Source: Alphaproteobacteria bacterium
Lineage (GTDB): Bacteria > Pseudomonadota > Alphaproteobacteria > Bin95
Direction: 5' to 3'
Assembly: GCA_022827685.1 (NCBI GenBank)
Contig: JAJEIH010000095.1
Coordinates: 1 to 64,000, forward strand
DNA length: 64,000 nt
Shown piece after piece: positions 9,267 to 59,254 of this stretch. A model generated the notes under the pieces. That model saw nothing but the letters and a program-made list of their open reading frames with translations, had not been told where the DNA came from and searched no databases. The stretch's first letter is position 1. Every line of letters starts with the position of its first letter. The translations under genes were made by a program, and so were the position numbers.

Positions 9267-10426
9267 ACGCGCCGCTCGCATCCTATGCCGCCTCGCCCTC
9301 TGCCGGGCGGGGCCGGCGCTGGCCGGAGCCGGAGGCCGCCGACCGCACGCCCTTCCAGCGCGACCGCGACCGCATCCTCCATTCCGCCGCCTTCCGCCGG
9401 CTGCAATACAAGACCCAGGTGTTCGTGTCCGCCGAGGGCGACCATTACCGCAGCCGCCTGACCCACTCGCTCGAGGTCGGCCAGATCGCGCGCAGCATCT
9501 GCCGCAGCCTCGCGCTCGACGAGACGCTGGCGGAGACGCTGGCGCTCGCGCACGATCTCGGCCACACGCCCTTCGGCCATGCGGGCGAAGCCGCGCTCGA
9601 CAAGGCGCTCAGCAGCTGCGGCGGCTTCGACCACAATGTGCAGACCCTGCGCATCGTTACCCGGCTGGAAGCCCGCTACGCCGCCTTCGACGGCCTGAAC
9701 CTCACCTGGGAAACGCTGGAAGGGCTCGCCAAGCATAACGGGCCCGCCGCGCCCGGCGCGGTCTCCCCGCCGGTTGCGGAACTCGACCGCGCGCTGAATC
9801 TGCGCCTCGACGAGTGGCCCGGCCTCGAAGCGCAGGCCGCCGCGCTCGCCGACGACATCGCCTACAACAACCACGACATCGACGACGGCGTGCGTTCCGG
9901 GCTGCTGTGCCTCGACGACCTGCGCGGCCTGCCGCTTTTCGGGGAGGCCATAGCCGAGGTCGAATCCCGCTACGGCAAGCTGCCGCCGGCGCGCCTCATC
10001 CACGAGACGGTGCGCCGGGGCGTGCGCGCCATGGTGGCGGACACGGTGGCGGAGACCCGCCGCCGGCTCGCCGAAGCCCGGCCGGAGACCGCCGACGATG
10101 TCCGCCGGGCGGGCCGGCCGCTGGTCGCCTTCTCGGAAGGCATGGCGGAGACGGACCGGGCGCTCAAGGCCTTCATGCGCGAGCGGCTCTTCCGCCATCC
10201 CCATATCGAGGCGGAGACCGGGAGGGCCCGGATCGTGGTGACGGACCTGTTCGGCGCGCTCTCGGCCCGGCCCGGGGCGCTGCCCCCGGAATGGCGCCGC
10301 CGCGCGGACGGCGCGGACGCCTGTCGGGCGGCGCGCATCGTCGCGGACTATATTGCCGGCATGACCGACCGCTACGCCGACAGCGAACACGCCCGCCTCT
10401 GCAAGGGAGGCCGCGCGCCCGGATGA
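9263..10426 (+). CDS. dgt: Deoxyguanosinetriphosphate triphosphohydrolase-like protein (HD domain)
   Basis: The 387-residue protein has the hallmarks of dNTPases: RDRDRILHSAAFRRLQYKTQVF near the N-terminus and the metal-binding HD pattern H...HD (LTHSLEV, then LALAHDLGHTPFGHAGE). A later conserved DDIAYNNHDIDDG segment completes the set. It hydrolyses dNTPs to nucleosides and triphosphate, helping to balance dNTP pools. It starts the dgt-argS-SPOR-nagZ gene string common in Alphaproteobacteria. Its stop overlaps the argS start (ATGA). Confidence 0.93.
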   Translation: MNAPLASYAASPSAGRGRRWPEPEAADRTPFQRDRDRILHSAAFRRLQYKTQVFVSAEGDHYRSRLTHSLEVGQIARSICRSLALDETLAETLALAHDLGHTPFGHAGEAALDKALSSCGGFDHNVQTLRIVTRLEARYAAFDGLNLTWETLEGLAKHNGPAAPGAVSPPVAELDRALNLRLDEWPGLEAQAAALADDIAYNNHDIDDGVRSGLLCLDDLRGLPLFGEAIAEVESRYGKLPPARLIHETVRRGVRAMVADTVAETRRRLAEARPETADDVRRAGRPLVAFSEGMAETDRALKAFMRERLFRHPHIEAETGRARIVVTDLFGALSARPGALPPEWRRRADGADACRAARIVADYIAGMTDRYADSEHARLCKGGRAPG

Positions 10427-53244: not shown

Positions 53245-54171
53245 ATGCCGAACTTCGCCCGCACCGCGATCCTGCTCGCCGGCCTGACCGGCCTGTTCCT
53301 CGCCGTCGGCTACCTGCTGGGCGGTCCCGCCGGCATGGGGCTGGCGCTCGTCTTCGCGCTTGGCATGAACGCCTTCGCCTGGTGGAACTCGGACCGGATG
53401 CTGCTCTCCATGTACGGCGCGGAGGAGGCGGACGAACGGCGCGAGCCGGAACTCCACGCCATGGTCCGGCGCCTCTCGAAACGGGCCGAACTGCCGATGC
53501 CGCGCGTCTATATCGTCCGCAACGACCAGCCCAATGCCTTCGCCACCGGGCGCAACCCGGAGAACGCCGCCGTCGCGGCCACGACGGGCCTCTTGCAGAC
53601 CCTCTCGCCCAAAGAGGTCGAAGGCGTGATGGCGCACGAGCTTGCGCATGTGAAGAACCGCGACACGCTCATCATGACGATCACCGCGACGGTTGCGGGC
53701 GCGGTATCGATGCTCGCGAATTTCGGCCTCTTCTTCGGCGGCGGGCGCAACAGTCCGCTCGGTTTCGCCGGTGCCCTGCTCGTCGCGATCCTGGCGCCCA
53801 TGGCGGCCATGCTGGTGCAGATGGCGATCAGCCGGGCGCGCGAATACGAGGCCGACAGGCTGGGCGCGGAAATCTGCGGCGACCCGCTGGCGCTCGCTTC
53901 CGCGCTCGAACGCCTGGAGCGGGGCGCCGCCCGCATCGACAACCATGCGGCCGAACGCAACCCCGCCACCGCCCATATGTTCATCGTGAACCCGCTGCAC
54001 GCGCACAAGGCCGACAAGCTGTTCTCGACGCATCCCTCGACGGCGAACCGGGTCCGGGCGCTCCGGGACATGGCCCGTGCGCCGCGCCCGCGCCCGGCCG
54101 GACGGCCGGGCGGCGCGCCGACCGGCGCCTCGTGGATGCAGGGGCCCCGCCGCAAGGGTCCCTGGGCGTGA
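53245..54171 (+). CDS. htpX: Membrane metalloprotease HtpX
   Basis: A 308-residue M48 protease with membrane helices at about 8-25 and 30-48. The zinc motif HELAH is at 131-135, [10 protein letters not shown] supplies the later metal ligand, and more hydrophobic segments lie at about 145-195. It helps remove damaged inner-membrane proteins. ATG 53245 gives the usual [13 protein letters not shown] start; an ATG 12 codons upstream is possible. It overlaps rsmB (GTGA). Confidence 0.93.
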
Positions 54172-55418
54172 GCGGCGGCGCGGCCCGCGCGCTCGCTCTC
54201 GACCTGCTCGCTTCCGTCCTGCTGGAAGGCCGCCCGCTCGAAGACCCGCCGCCGGAGATGGGAAGCCCGGAGACGCGCGCCTTCGCGCGCCGCCTTGCCG
54301 CGACGGTGCTCAGGCGCGCGGGCCAGATCGAGGCGCTGACGGCGCGCTTCCTCGTCCGGCCCCTGCCCCGCCGGGCGGAGCGGACCCGGCTGCTGCTGAT
54401 GCTCGGCATGGCGCAGATACTGTTCGAGGAGGTGCCGGCCCATGCGGCGGTCGATACCGCCGTCGGGCTGGCGGATGCGCGCATGAAGGGCCTCGTCAAC
54501 GCCGTGCTGCGCCGCTGCGCGCGCGAGGCACCTGCCCTGGTCGAAGCCCAGGACGCCGCCCGTCTGAACACGCCGCCGCGCCTGATGGCGGGCTGGGAGG
54601 CGGTCTATGGCGAGGCCGCCGCCCGCGCCGTCGCCGAAGCGCATCTCGGGGACGCGCCGCTCGACCTCTCGCTTCGCCGGCCCGACGCGCCCGGCCCGCT
54701 GCCGGAGGGCAGGATCATGCCGACCGGCTCGCTGCGCCTTACGCGGCCGGGGGCGGTAAGCCGGATGCCCGGATACGAGGAGGGCGGCTGGTGGGTCCAG
54801 GACATGGCGGCCGCCCTGCCGGCGCGGATGCTGGGCCCTGTCGCCGGCGAGCACGTGCTGGACCTCTGCGCCGCGCCCGGCGGCAAGACCGCGCAACTCG
54901 CCGCGGCCGGGGCGCGGGTGACGGCGCTGGACCGCGCGCCCGACCGGCTGGCGGCGGCGCGGGCCAATTTCGCCCGTCTCGGCCTGGAAGCGGAGTGGGT
55001 CGAAGCCGACGCCGCCGAGTGGCGGCCGGAGAGGCCCTTCCCGGCCGTGCTGCTCGATGCGCCCTGCAGCGCCACCGGCACGATCCGCCGGCACCCCGAC
55101 ATCCTGCACCGCCGGGCCGGGCGGCGGCTCGACCGGCTGACCGCGCTCCAGGACCGCCTTCTCGCCGGCGCGGCCGACGCCACCGCCCCGGGCGGGCGGC
55201 TGGTCTATGCCTGCTGCTCGCTGGAGCCCGAGGAAGGGCCGGAGCGCATCGCCGCCTTCCTCGCCACACGGCCCGAATTCGCGCTGGAGCCGGTCGCCTT
55301 CCCGGCGCTCCCGGACGCCGCGGCGCCCGACGGCGCGCTGCGCACGCTGCCCTCCATGCTCCCGGAGCAAGGCGGCATGGACGGCTTCTACGCCGCCCGC
55401 CTCGTCCGCGTGGGGTGA
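54168..55418 (+). CDS. rsmB: 16S rRNA (cytosine-967-C5) methyltransferase
   Basis: The 416-residue protein has an N-terminal NusB-like helical domain (about 1-135) and a SAM methyltransferase domain with [30 protein letters not shown] and [11 protein letters not shown], whose two cysteines form the m5C active site. It starts at GTG 54168, overlapping htpX by 4 bp. It ends at 55418, just before the Fic gene. Confidence 0.94.
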
Positions 55419-55446
55419 GGGCGGCGGCGTTGCTGTTGCCGGCGTT

Positions 55447-55475
55447 TGACAGAAATGTTGTCAGCCGATCTGTCA
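55447..55475. promoter_or_regulatory. Candidate operator upstream of the Fic gene
   Basis: TGACA (55447-55451) and TGTCA (55459-55463) form an inverted repeat, and another TGTCA at 55471-55475 follows 12 bp on. They lie in an unusually AT-rich patch about 55-80 bp before the Fic start. A regulator binding TGTCA half-sites is possible. Confidence 0.35.
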
Positions 55476-55528
55476 TATCTTCCATTGAAATAATGTAACC
55501 AGTTGAATATAATCACCTTCTCTCGGAT

Positions 55529-56719
55529 TTGTTTGTGACAAAGACAGTGACAAACCAGCGGCCATACGAGCGGACACATCCCTGGCTGACCTTTGCCTTC
55601 GACCTCGGGCGGCTGCAACATACGGACTGGCTGGCCCTCGGCGAGGCGGCGGCGATGATCGACCGGATCGCCGGTGCGCCGCTCGACCCGGACATCGCCG
55701 AGGAGGTCCACAAGCTCTATCTCGCCAGGGGCGCGCTCGCCACCACCGCCATCGAAGGCAACACGCTCTCGGAAGAGGAGGCGCGCGGCGTCATCGACGA
55801 GACGGCAGCGCTTCCGGCATCGCGCGCCTATCTCGGGCAGGAAATCCGGAACATCGTCGAAGCGTGCAATCTTGTGGGGGGCGAGATTGCCGGGCACGGC
55901 CGTTTCGCACTGACCGTCGAGAGCATAGAGCGGCTGAACGCCGTGGTGCTCCGCGATCTTGAGGTCGAGGACCATGTCGCGCCCGGAAAGGTCCGCGAGG
56001 TGAATGTGTCGGTCGGCGGCTACCGTTGCCCCGACCGGCGCGACGCCGCTTTCCTGCTGGACCGGCTTTGCGGGGTGTTGAACGATTTTCCGCTGCCGGA
56101 CGGGAACCGCTACGCCTTCTCGATCCTCAAGGCGGTCTTCGCGCACCTCTATTTCGTCTGGATCCATCCCTTCGGCGACGGCAACGGACGCACGGCGCGG
56201 CTGATCGAACTGGCCATCCTGCTGGAAGCGGGCCTGCCCCAGCCCGCCTGCCATCTGCCCAGCAACCACTACAACCTCACGCGGACCGAATATTACCGCC
56301 AGCTTGCGAGGGCCAGCGGCGGGGAGAACGGCATATACGGCTTCGCAAGCTACACAATCCGGGGATTTGCGGACGGATTGCGCGAACAGGTCGAGGTCAT
56401 CCGGGAGCACCAGGAAGCGGTCGCCTGGGTCAATTTCGTCCATGAGCAATTCCGCGAAAGCAGGGGCGCGGGGGCGCCGAGGCAGCGCGACCTGCTGCTT
56501 GCGTTGTCGCGGCAGCCCGGCCCGGTTCCGGTGAACCGCCTGGCGTCTCTCGATGCGGTGACCGCTCTGGCCTACGCATCGCTTTCGGACCGGACGCTGC
56601 TGCGCGATGTCGAGGCGCTGGCGCGCCGCGGCCTTCTGTCGAGCGGTCCGGACGGTGTCCGCGCAAACCGGGAGCGCATCCGCGCCTTCCTGCCCTGGCG
56701 GAACGATCCGCCGTCCTGA
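55529..56719 (+). CDS. Fic-domain protein (predicted AMPylator, class II)
   Basis: A 396-residue protein with the complete Fic motif HPFGDGNGRTAR (213-224). The inhibitory motif T-x-x-x-E-G (T72, E76, G77 in TTAIEGN) lies N-terminal to it, so it is a class II Fic enzyme that blocks itself until released. It may transfer AMP to a protein hydroxyl. The C-terminal part resembles a winged-helix domain. The start is taken as TTG 55529, with GTGs 2 and 6 codons later possible. It is followed closely by the direct-repeat-bounded cassette. Confidence 0.85.
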   Translation: MFVTKTVTNQRPYERTHPWLTFAFDLGRLQHTDWLALGEAAAMIDRIAGAPLDPDIAEEVHKLYLARGALATTAIEGNTLSEEEARGVIDETAALPASRAYLGQEIRNIVEACNLVGGEIAGHGRFALTVESIERLNAVVLRDLEVEDHVAPGKVREVNVSVGGYRCPDRRDAAFLLDRLCGVLNDFPLPDGNRYAFSILKAVFAHLYFVWIHPFGDGNGRTARLIELAILLEAGLPQPACHLPSNHYNLTRTEYYRQLARASGGENGIYGFASYTIRGFADGLREQVEVIREHQEAVAWVNFVHEQFRESRGAGAPRQRDLLLALSRQPGPVPVNRLASLDAVTALAYASLSDRTLLRDVEALARRGLLSSGPDGVRANRERIRAFLPWRNDPPS

Positions 56720-56727
56720 GCAGGCAC

Positions 56728-56762
56728 CCGCGCCGCATCAAAGGCGGTAGATGCGGGCGGCG
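56728..56762. repeat. Left copy of 35-bp direct repeat flanking cassette
   Basis: 35 bp that match 58224-58258 with only two mismatches, including 21 identical bases in a row at the right end. It lies 9 bp after the Fic stop and starts a 1.5-kb interval with the nuclease-like gene. The right copy covers the end of the amidohydrolase gene, so this left copy is a detached duplicate of that gene end. Confidence 0.85.
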
Positions 56763-56858
56763 ACCGTACTTCTGTCCCCGGTGGAGCGGACGGCGCTGCA
56801 AAGACTGTCGTTCGACTCCGGCAGCGACAGCCGCACTTGTGGTTCCCGATGGGTCCCG

Positions 56859-58118
56859 TTAGTCATTTCGCAGGGCTGCATGCCGCTTGTCGAAGAGTTC
56901 TTCCAAGCGCTCGCGGCGGAACTCCAGAAAATCGGGAATGTTGTCCACGCCTCCCACGGGAGTGCTCCACCGGAAATTGTCGAGAGACCAAGTCTGGTCG
57001 TCGCAGGGCTTTACCGCCAGGGGCGGCGGTACGATGCGGCAAATCCTGCCGTAGAGTTGCTGAGCCCGTCGCTGCATCAGACTCCGCAGCCTGGGCGAGA
57101 AGTCTGTCGGCCTTAGGAAAGCACCCGGTACGTAAGCCGAGTTCGCCGCGCTCGTGAACAACCCGTACGGCAGTACCGGTTCCTTGGCATCCGGCAGGAT
57201 ATCCAGCTCCTCGCGCCAGCGGTTCCCGTATTCCTTGTGGTCGAAGAGGTGCGCAAGCTGGTAGTCGTCCGGTCCGCGCTTGCGGAACGGCTTGCCGGTG
57301 AAGACGAACGCCCACAAATGCTTCGGATAGTCGTTGTCGTCGAGGGCAAGGCATTGTGGGGGAACTTCGTCCGCCGTAGCCCGCTGCCGGAACACCGCAA
57401 TCTCCGTGCTTCCGGCGTACCGACGAACGCCCGGGAAAACGCAGGGCGAACTTTCCCACAGATAGATGGCGGGATCGATGCCGAGCGCCTCAAGCCGGGA
57501 AGACCAGCCGGCCCTCATGCGGCGATTGTCCTGGACGACAGCGTAGACGATGCCGGGATCGAGGAAACGCACGAACGGTGTCATCGCTCGGGCAAGCTCC
57601 CGCAAATCCTCGTCGCTCGGCGTCGGCCACGCTGGCCAGTCTGCACCCCGTCGTCGGGGTGGCCGCGCTTGCGGTGCTCGCTTGGCAGGAACGTCAGTCG
57701 AGTCGGCTTTGCCGCCGGCAGCGTAACGGTCGAAAGCCTCAACATATCGCAGGAGCGTCCGAGAACCGGCGTGCTCCGGTTTTCTCCGCGCGAGCGCGGA
57801 CACGAACCTCGACAGAGCATGGGCGTTGGCCCGGTGATGCTGCTTCCACCACTGCGAGCACACAAGGAACTCGTCAGCGTACGCATGCTCCCAGTACCGG
57901 CCGTGACCTTGAATCATCCGCCCTTGGTTCCGATGACGCAGAAGCGCGAGGTTCGGGAGGCTCAGGCCGAGCACGTCCTTGCAATGCTCGGCATCCATCA
58001 GGCTGACGATCTCTTTCTTTTCCAGAAGCGTGGGATGCTCCTCCAGCAATGTTCGCATGAGGGTCGCCACAATCTTCTGGAACTCTCCCCTCACTCCGCG
58101 AACTCCCGGCTTACTCAT
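56859..58118 (-). CDS. Uncharacterised protein, possibly HNH-type nuclease
   Basis: A 419-residue protein whose family I do not recognise. The C-terminal half has LAHLFDHKEYGNRW (H290, D293, H294), then GLFTSAANSAYVPGAFLRPTDFSPRLR (N326), spaced like the His and Asn of HNH/beta-beta-alpha-metal nucleases; this is a weak inference. The N-terminal 130 residues are helical, followed by a basic Arg/Pro-rich linker (about 145-160). Codon use and base composition look lower in GC than neighbours. ATG 58118 is the only good start. It lies inside the direct-repeat-bounded cassette and may be a defence or mobile-element gene. Confidence 0.5.
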   Translation of the reverse strand: MSKPGVRGVRGEFQKIVATLMRTLLEEHPTLLEKKEIVSLMDAEHCKDVLGLSLPNLALLRHRNQGRMIQGHGRYWEHAYADEFLVCSQWWKQHHRANAHALSRFVSALARRKPEHAGSRTLLRYVEAFDRYAAGGKADSTDVPAKRAPQARPPRRRGADWPAWPTPSDEDLRELARAMTPFVRFLDPGIVYAVVQDNRRMRAGWSSRLEALGIDPAIYLWESSPCVFPGVRRYAGSTEIAVFRQRATADEVPPQCLALDDNDYPKHLWAFVFTGKPFRKRGPDDYQLAHLFDHKEYGNRWREELDILPDAKEPVLPYGLFTSAANSAYVPGAFLRPTDFSPRLRSLMQRRAQQLYGRICRIVPPPLAVKPCDDQTWSLDNFRWSTPVGGVDNIPDFLEFRRERLEELFDKRHAALRND

Positions 58119-58223
58119 GACATCCCTTCGTTGTGTGAGCCGTCGGGAAGCGGCTTGCCTTGCCTGACTCGCTACGGTCGCTGCGGCGAGCCGCTGCCCC
58201 AGTGAGACAGGCGAACTCGGCGT

Positions 58224-58258
58224 CCGCGCCGCGTCACAGGCGGTAGATGCGGGCGGCG
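58224..58258. repeat. Right copy of 35-bp direct repeat flanking cassette
   Basis: This copy covers the last 7 codons and stop of the amidohydrolase gene (58234 onward) and about 10 bp beyond. It matches 56728-56762 with two mismatches. Together they look like att or target-site copies left when the cassette entered at the gene end, which stayed intact. Confidence 0.85.
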
Positions 58259-59250
58259 TTGTCGTGGTAGAGCGCCGCCTTTTCCTCCGCCGAGTAGCCG
58301 GCGGTCAGGCGCTTGAAGGCGTTCCAGAGCACCGTGTAGCTGCAGCTCACCTTCTCGACCGGGAAGTTCGATTCGAACAGGCAGCGCTCCGTGCCGAACA
58401 GTTCCAGGGTCGCCTCGTAGTAGCGCCTTGAGGCGTCCATCAGCTCCCGGCTGGTCGGCGGGCGGGACCGTTCGTGCCAGCCGAAGCCGTTGACCTCCAT
58501 CGCGAGCCCGCCGAGCTTGGCCATGACATTCGGGCAGGCGGCGACGGGCGCCATGGCCTTGCGCCAGTCGGCGAACACCTCGTCCGCGCGTCCCGCATGG
58601 GGGCCGATGCCGATCGGCCCGCCGAAATGGTCGAGGATGAAGACCTGGTCCGGGAAGTCGCGGACCAGCCGGGCCGCCTCGTCGAGCTGGGTGTGGTAGC
58701 ACCAGAGCTCAAAGGTGAGCCCGCGCGGCGCGAGATGGGCGAGGCCGGCGCGGAAGCCCGCGCTGTCATAGAGGCCCGGCGGCGGCTCCGTGCGGTGGTT
58801 GGGCACCTGCGCGCTCTCATGCCATGTGGCGCCCCGGCGGATGCCGCGGAACCGCCCGCGCCCGGCCTCGATCTGCGCGTCCAGCACGGCAGCCGCGCTG
58901 TCGCCCCGTTCGAGCCAGGCCGTGCCGACGATGCCGGCGGCGATCCGCGCCGGCCCGTAGCCGCCCGAGGCCGACATGGCGGCGATGCCGTTCACGAACT
59001 CGGTCTCGCCGAGCGGGCGCATGTCCTCCGGCCCGTCGGCGCGGAACATGGCGCCGCATTCGATGAAGACCGTGCTGACGACATTGTGGCCGCTGGCAAG
59101 GTCCTCCAGGAACTCGTCCAGCAGGTAGCGCGGCTGCACATAGCCCGCGCGCGCATCCCAGAGATGGTGGTGCGGGTCGCAGATCGGCAGGTCCGGCTCC
59201 AGCGCCTCCTCTTCGGTCAGCGCCAGCCAGTCCGCATTGTCGCTCGCCAT
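58234..59250 (-). CDS. Amidohydrolase (metal-dependent, amidohydrolase 2 family)
   Basis: The 338-residue TIM-barrel protein has the metal pair in CDPHHHLWD (H27, H29), VFILDHFGGPIG and FESNFPVEK, the layout of PF04909 lactonase/decarboxylase-type hydrolases. Substrate unknown. It starts 5 bp from the ccrM end on the same strand and may be cotranscribed. Its final codons are part of the 35-bp repeat. Confidence 0.88.
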   Translation of the reverse strand: MASDNADWLALTEEEALEPDLPICDPHHHLWDARAGYVQPRYLLDEFLEDLASGHNVVSTVFIECGAMFRADGPEDMRPLGETEFVNGIAAMSASGGYGPARIAAGIVGTAWLERGDSAAAVLDAQIEAGRGRFRGIRRGATWHESAQVPNHRTEPPPGLYDSAGFRAGLAHLAPRGLTFELWCYHTQLDEAARLVRDFPDQVFILDHFGGPIGIGPHAGRADEVFADWRKAMAPVAACPNVMAKLGGLAMEVNGFGWHERSRPPTSRELMDASRRYYEATLELFGTERCLFESNFPVEKVSCSYTVLWNAFKRLTAGYSAEEKAALYHDNAARIYRL

Positions 59251-59254
59251 CCTC

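What the first reader, a model, noticed from the sequence alone, without database searches (positions are those of the whole stretch)
56728..58258. Mobile cassette flanked by 35-bp direct repeats at an amidohydrolase gene end
35 bp at 56728-56762 match 58224-58258 with two mismatches. The right copy is the real 3' end of the amidohydrolase gene; the left copy sits 9 bp after the Fic gene. The 1.5-kb interval between holds one gene with distinct composition. This is the pattern left by integration at a gene end that keeps the gene intact, yet no integrase or transposase is visible inside, so mobilisation would have to act in trans or by an unknown route.
Basis: partly seen in the sequence, partly recalled or inferred. 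Interest (0 to 1): 0.75.

Follow-up and report, generated by a model that had tools for sequence, protein, structure and literature searches.

The report
Variable mini-island with duplicated gene end
A 1.5-kb stretch carrying one probable defence-type gene sits between two copies of the last bases of a metabolic gene; relatives have it empty or filled with other genes, but the repeats look like a scar of one older insertion and not the borders of a gene that moves by itself.

Summary
The repeat is real: 40 bp, 36 identical (56723-56762 / 58219-58258), the only such pair in the window, with none expected by chance. Five congeners share the locus. Three lack everything (the neighbouring methyltransferase gene runs almost straight into the amidohydrolase end). 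G007 has Fic and ONE repeat copy: the predicted empty site. G003 has Fic and BOTH copies around a different filling (DUF1640-like mini-gene plus cupin-like gene). But the 419-aa gene (ORF419) is not a repeat-bounded cassette. In G005 the same segment (95% DNA identity) lies elsewhere without the repeat and ends about 63 bp short of the right copy; 12 other ORF419 sites show no comparable flanking repeat; the repeat core occurs nowhere else in ten genomes except at amidohydrolase-type gene ends. A 26-bp relic in the window's interval (58189-58214) matches the G003 mini-gene end, so the duplication probably predates ORF419's arrival. G000/G003 identity breaks at 59250 (2.5% vs 15.2% divergence), pointing to homologous exchange through flanking genes. 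Best reading: a small integrase-less turnover site of a known kind. ORF419 belongs to an unnamed family often found beside restriction/defence genes.

The parts
54168..55418 (+). Left neighbour: 3' part of an RsmB/NOL1-like RNA methyltransferase gene (name given by its motifs, not by a family search)
   Evidence: Conserved in all six genomes that have the locus; homology with the empty sites ends at 55422-55431
55423..56722 (+). Inserted segment with the Fic gene (55529-56719); present in G000, G003, G007, absent in G001, G002, G004
   Evidence: PADLOC SoFic E 5.6e-48
56723..56762 (-). Left repeat copy: relic of the amidohydrolase gene end (still spells ARIYRL-stop on the minus strand)
   Evidence: single copy in G007, two copies in G003
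56859..58118 (-). ORF419, 419 aa, unnamed family, probable defence-type gene
   Evidence: Relatives 41-94% identical in 17 genome records, beside type I restriction genes, an OLD-like ATPase and PDC-S11
56761..58156 (-). Segment shared with G005 at 95% DNA identity; the right end lies 62 bp short of the right repeat copy
58189..58214 (+). 26-bp relic of the 3' end of a DUF1640-like mini-gene (reads ..PLPQ-stop) that is intact in the G003 filling
   Evidence: 24/26 identical, 0 of 3000 shuffles as good; best non-self match in 14 genomes is G003 at the same locus, E 5.8e-4
58219..58258 (-). Right repeat copy: the working 3' end of the amidohydrolase gene
58234..59250 (-). Amidohydrolase gene (Amidohydro_2), intact
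   Evidence: 88-98% identical orthologues in G001, G002, G003, G004, G007
59250..59251 (.). Identity breakpoint between G000 and G003 (2.5% divergence to the left, 15.2% to the right)
   Evidence: Permutation p about 5e-4; no significant break against G007

Best explanation
This is a small variable island in the gap between two convergent genes. Fic came in, and in the lineages of G000 and G003 one insertion duplicated about 40 bp of the amidohydrolase end, leaving that gene intact and a relic copy beside Fic. The filling once held a DUF1640-like mini-gene, still present in G003. In the window's lineage ORF419, a probable defence-type gene that is spread over many bacteria, took the place of most of that filling. 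Alleles of the island pass between related strains by ordinary homologous recombination in the flanking genes. Shown: empty site, alternative filling, shared relic, identity breakpoint, ORF419 elsewhere without the repeat. Inferred: the order of events, that the exchange was by homologous recombination, and how the first duplication arose (integrase at a gene 3' end, or duplicative repair / short-homology joining), which these data do not separate.
For: Empty and alternative sites: G001, G002, G004, G007, G003. ORF419 segment in G005 with other ends and no repeat. No comparable flanking repeat at 12 other ORF419 sites. Relic shared with the G003 filling, 24/26, 0 of 3000 shuffles. Identity of G000 and G003 is 95-99% over most of 55000-59200 and falls to 85-87% beyond 59250, while G007 shows no break; trees of the left and right neighbour genes disagree. 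Hotspots without integrases that change by recombination at flanking core genes are described (PMC5635113).
Against: The relic is only 26 bp. Two substitutions near the stop codon group the copies differently (by genome and by side), so a single origin of the duplication in G000 and G003 is not proven. On the left side G000 and G003 match to 56767, only a few bases past the repeat, so the left edge of both fillings coincides with the repeat, as a site-specific event would give. All genomes are single representatives of different species; no within-population data. The position of G007 in the tree is unresolved, so its single copy could be a secondary loss.
Confidence: 0.62

Rival explanations
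1. Remnant of a site-specific integration: an element with a tyrosine recombinase entered at the amidohydrolase 3' end (left and right copies are attL and attR, the gene end restored by the element) and has since lost its recombinase and most cargo, later replaced by ORF419. This differs from the best explanation only in how the first duplication arose.
For: Repeat covers the last 22 coding bases plus about 18 bp beyond, with the gene intact; empty site with one copy; tyrosine recombinases are plentiful (20 matches in G000, 62 in G003); an ORF419 relative in G007 C200 lies tail-to-tail with a pair of them and the L085 copy beside a broken one.
Against: No recombinase or fragment in any allele of this site; no other amidohydrolase end in 40 extra loci carries a convincing duplicated end downstream; the paired-recombinase loci show no flanking direct repeats in the stretches examined.
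Confidence: 0.25
2. One reading: ORF419 plus repeat is a mobile unit moved in trans by a recombinase acting on the 35-bp copies.
For: Two fillings and an empty site at the same pair of repeats.
Against: ORF419 moves without the repeat (G005; 12 other sites); the repeat is found at no other cassette; the two fillings share a relic.
Confidence: 0.07
3. Assembly artefact: the interval was joined wrongly at the repeat.
For: The genomes are fragmented (G000 167 contigs, G003 730) and the close records found are metagenome assemblies; the G003 and G007 contigs end near the site.
Against: Two separately assembled genomes (G000, G003) have both copies with the same Fic-side junction, and the flanks are colinear with other congeners. 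A 35-bp repeat is shorter than the longest words normally used in assembly (general knowledge).
Confidence: 0.03

Closest known systems
[quoted passage not shown] 2017, PMC5635113)
   Same: Rapid change of accessory genes between two conserved genes, no mobility gene inside, recombination signal in the flank
   Different: Very small (one or two genes) and carries a duplicated gene end; only six genomes, so the rate of recombination was not measured
Genomic islands integrated at the 3' end of a gene by tyrosine recombinases (general knowledge)
   Same: Direct repeat made of a gene 3' end, gene left intact, empty site with one copy
   Different: No recombinase in any allele; no second element known at this gene end; two fillings share an internal relic
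Integron gene cassettes (general knowledge)
   Same: A single gene in a short segment without its own recombinase
   Different: The repeat is a protein-coding gene end and does not travel with ORF419; no array

Membership tests
Integrase-less recombination hotspot | Different accessory genes, or none, between the same two conserved genes in related genomes | tested here: met
   Four states in six genomes
Integrase-less recombination hotspot | No integrase or transposase in the variable segment | tested here: met
Integrase-less recombination hotspot | Homologous recombination in the flanking genes | tested here: met
   Breakpoint at 59250 against G003, permutation p about 5e-4, not against G007; left and right gene trees disagree
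Site-specific island at a gene 3' end | Direct repeat including the gene 3' end, gene intact, one copy at the empty site | tested here: met
Site-specific island at a gene 3' end | A recombinase gene in the element | tested here: not met
   None in the G000 or G003 filling
Site-specific island at a gene 3' end | The same attachment site used by other elements of the family | tested here: not met
   No other locus with a convincing duplicated end
Integron cassette | attC-type site that travels with the gene | tested here: not met
   ORF419 in G005 and 12 other sites lacks the repeat
HNH nuclease (ORF419) | His-Asn-His motif in a beta-beta-alpha fold | tested here: inconclusive
   Invariant AHxxDHK and N326, but no Pfam, PDB-sequence or PDB-fold match; model mean pLDDT 62

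The most novel reading that the evidence does not exclude
An integrase-free exchange site in which a duplicated protein-gene end acts as a docking pair, so that single defence-type genes are swapped between the two copies by a recombinase acting in trans.
Probability: 0.07. Interest if true: 0.75.

Novelty: new member of a known kind. Interest (0 to 1): 0.3.

Why it matters
It gives a step-resolved example (empty, Fic only, two different fillings) of how accessory genes accumulate and turn over in a gap between two convergent genes without a resident integrase. It shows that a gene-end repeat can be a fossil of an earlier insertion rather than the border of the gene now inside it. It also points to an unnamed gene family found beside restriction and defence genes in several bacterial phyla.

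Tried and rejected
(1) Other cassettes ending in the repeat: none in ten genomes; the one exact 20-mer match among 2.9 million viral contigs lies in unrelated sequence and was taken as chance. (2) Duplicated ends at other amidohydrolase genes: no convincing case; the one candidate, L149, was judged a probable neighbouring paralogue and not followed up. (3) Paired tyrosine recombinases as the mover: no direct repeats around 21 loci in the stretches examined, several cut by contig ends. (4) ORF419 in plasmids, phages, viral contigs: none. (5) Naming ORF419 by Pfam, PADLOC, NCBIfam, PHROGs, PDB sequence or PDB fold: nothing. (6) A tree to place G007: left and right flanks disagree and the concatenation is unresolved, so original absence and later loss in G007 cannot be told apart. 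(7) A possible attachment-site inverted repeat in the left copy (CCGCATC, 10 bases, GATGCGG), seen by eye, is not kept in the other copies and was not counted.

Full report
OBSERVATION. The repeat is as described: 36 of 40 bases identical between 56723-56762 and 58219-58258. It is the only pair of that strength in the window, and none is expected in shuffled sequence. The right copy is the end of an intact Amidohydro_2 gene. The left copy begins 3 bp after the Fic stop and still spells ARIYRL-stop on the minus strand. The interval holds one gene, ORF419 (56859-58118, minus, 419 aa). Its G+C (about 62-65%) is lower than that of most of the outer neighbours, and Fic is low as well.

EMPTY AND FILLED SITES. 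Seven congeners are held; five of them, and the window's genome, have the locus. In G004 and G002, 13 bp separate the stop of the left methyltransferase gene from the stop of the amidohydrolase gene; in G001 it is 24 bp; no Fic, no duplication. In G007 Fic is followed by a single copy of the repeat and the amidohydrolase gene. Its Fic gene is split over two contigs, but the upstream contig shows the window's sequence after the methyltransferase gene. G003 has Fic, the left copy, about 870 bp with a DUF1640-like mini-gene and a cupin-like gene (both named by eye from their translations), and the right copy.

WHAT MOVES. ORF419 is not tied to the repeat. G005 carries the same segment at 95% DNA identity at another place, matching window 56761-58156 only, with no copy of the repeat core nearby. 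Beyond this genus, relatives of 41-89% protein identity occur in genome records of several phyla, most of them metagenome assemblies. None of the 12 other ORF419 sites examined has a flanking direct repeat of comparable strength (scores 18-26 against 60 here). With up to one mismatch, the 18-base core of the repeat occurs in ten genomes only at this locus and at one kind of paralogous amidohydrolase end.

ORDER OF EVENTS. Inside the window's interval, 58189-58214 matches the end of the G003 mini-gene and the bases after it at 24 of 26 positions. No pair of 3000 shuffles came near that score, and in 14 genomes the best match outside the window is that same locus in G003. The two filled alleles thus appear to share old content: the duplication came first, and ORF419 came later in place of most of the earlier filling. 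This is inference from a short relic. Substitutions inside the repeat are too few to test it, and two of them conflict.

HOW ALLELES SPREAD. G000 and G003 differ by 25 of 989 bases from 58262 to 59250 and by 53 of 349 beyond (permutation p about 5e-4), while G000 against G007 shows no significant break. Trees of the left and right neighbour genes disagree, though with modest support. This is what a block exchanged by homologous recombination in flanking genes would leave, the mechanism described for hotspots that lack integrases (PMC5635113).

ORF419. The family has invariant DDNDYPKHLW, YxxAHxxDHK and an asparagine (N326), which recalls HNH nucleases. No family library or solved structure confirms it, and the model is confident only in the C-terminal part. 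Relatives lie beside HsdR, HsdS and HsdM genes (L090), HsdS and HsdR (L097), HsdS (L098), an OLD-like ATPase (L084) and the PADLOC candidate PDC-S11 (G007 C200). A role in phage defence is likely but untested. In the window and its close relatives (L083-L086) the N-terminal region differs from that of most other members, which suggests a domain exchange.

WHAT REMAINS OPEN. How the 40-bp duplication arose. A lost tyrosine-recombinase element is possible: ORF419 relatives stand beside such genes in G007 C200 and L085. No intact example uses this gene end, so duplicative repair or short-homology joining is equally allowed.

Noticed in passing
G000 C102, C49, C39, C161, C24 and many places in G003 and G007 (L167-L186): Tandem pairs of tyrosine recombinase genes about 1.1 kb apart recur in these genomes, apparently as a repeated mobile element.
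   Followed up: partly
L083-L099 and window 56859-58118: Unnamed protein family (ORF419) with invariant DDNDYPKHLW and AHxxDHK, found beside type I restriction and other defence genes, with an exchanged N-terminal region in the clade nearest the window.
   Followed up: partly
L085 5980-7908: An ORF419 copy abuts a broken tyrosine integrase; 44 bp next to it are shared at 89% with the flank of the G005 copy.
   Followed up: partly
L050 (G003 C73) insert and L060-L070: A short gene with ATKADL-type repeats (DUF1640-like by eye) has many scattered relatives in this genus.
   Followed up: partly
L055 about 9428-9475 in reversed orientation (G005 C259): The 3' flank of the G005 ORF419 copy ends in a perfect inverted repeat CCGTCCGCAC...GTGCGGACGG, degenerate in the window copy.
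   Followed up: no
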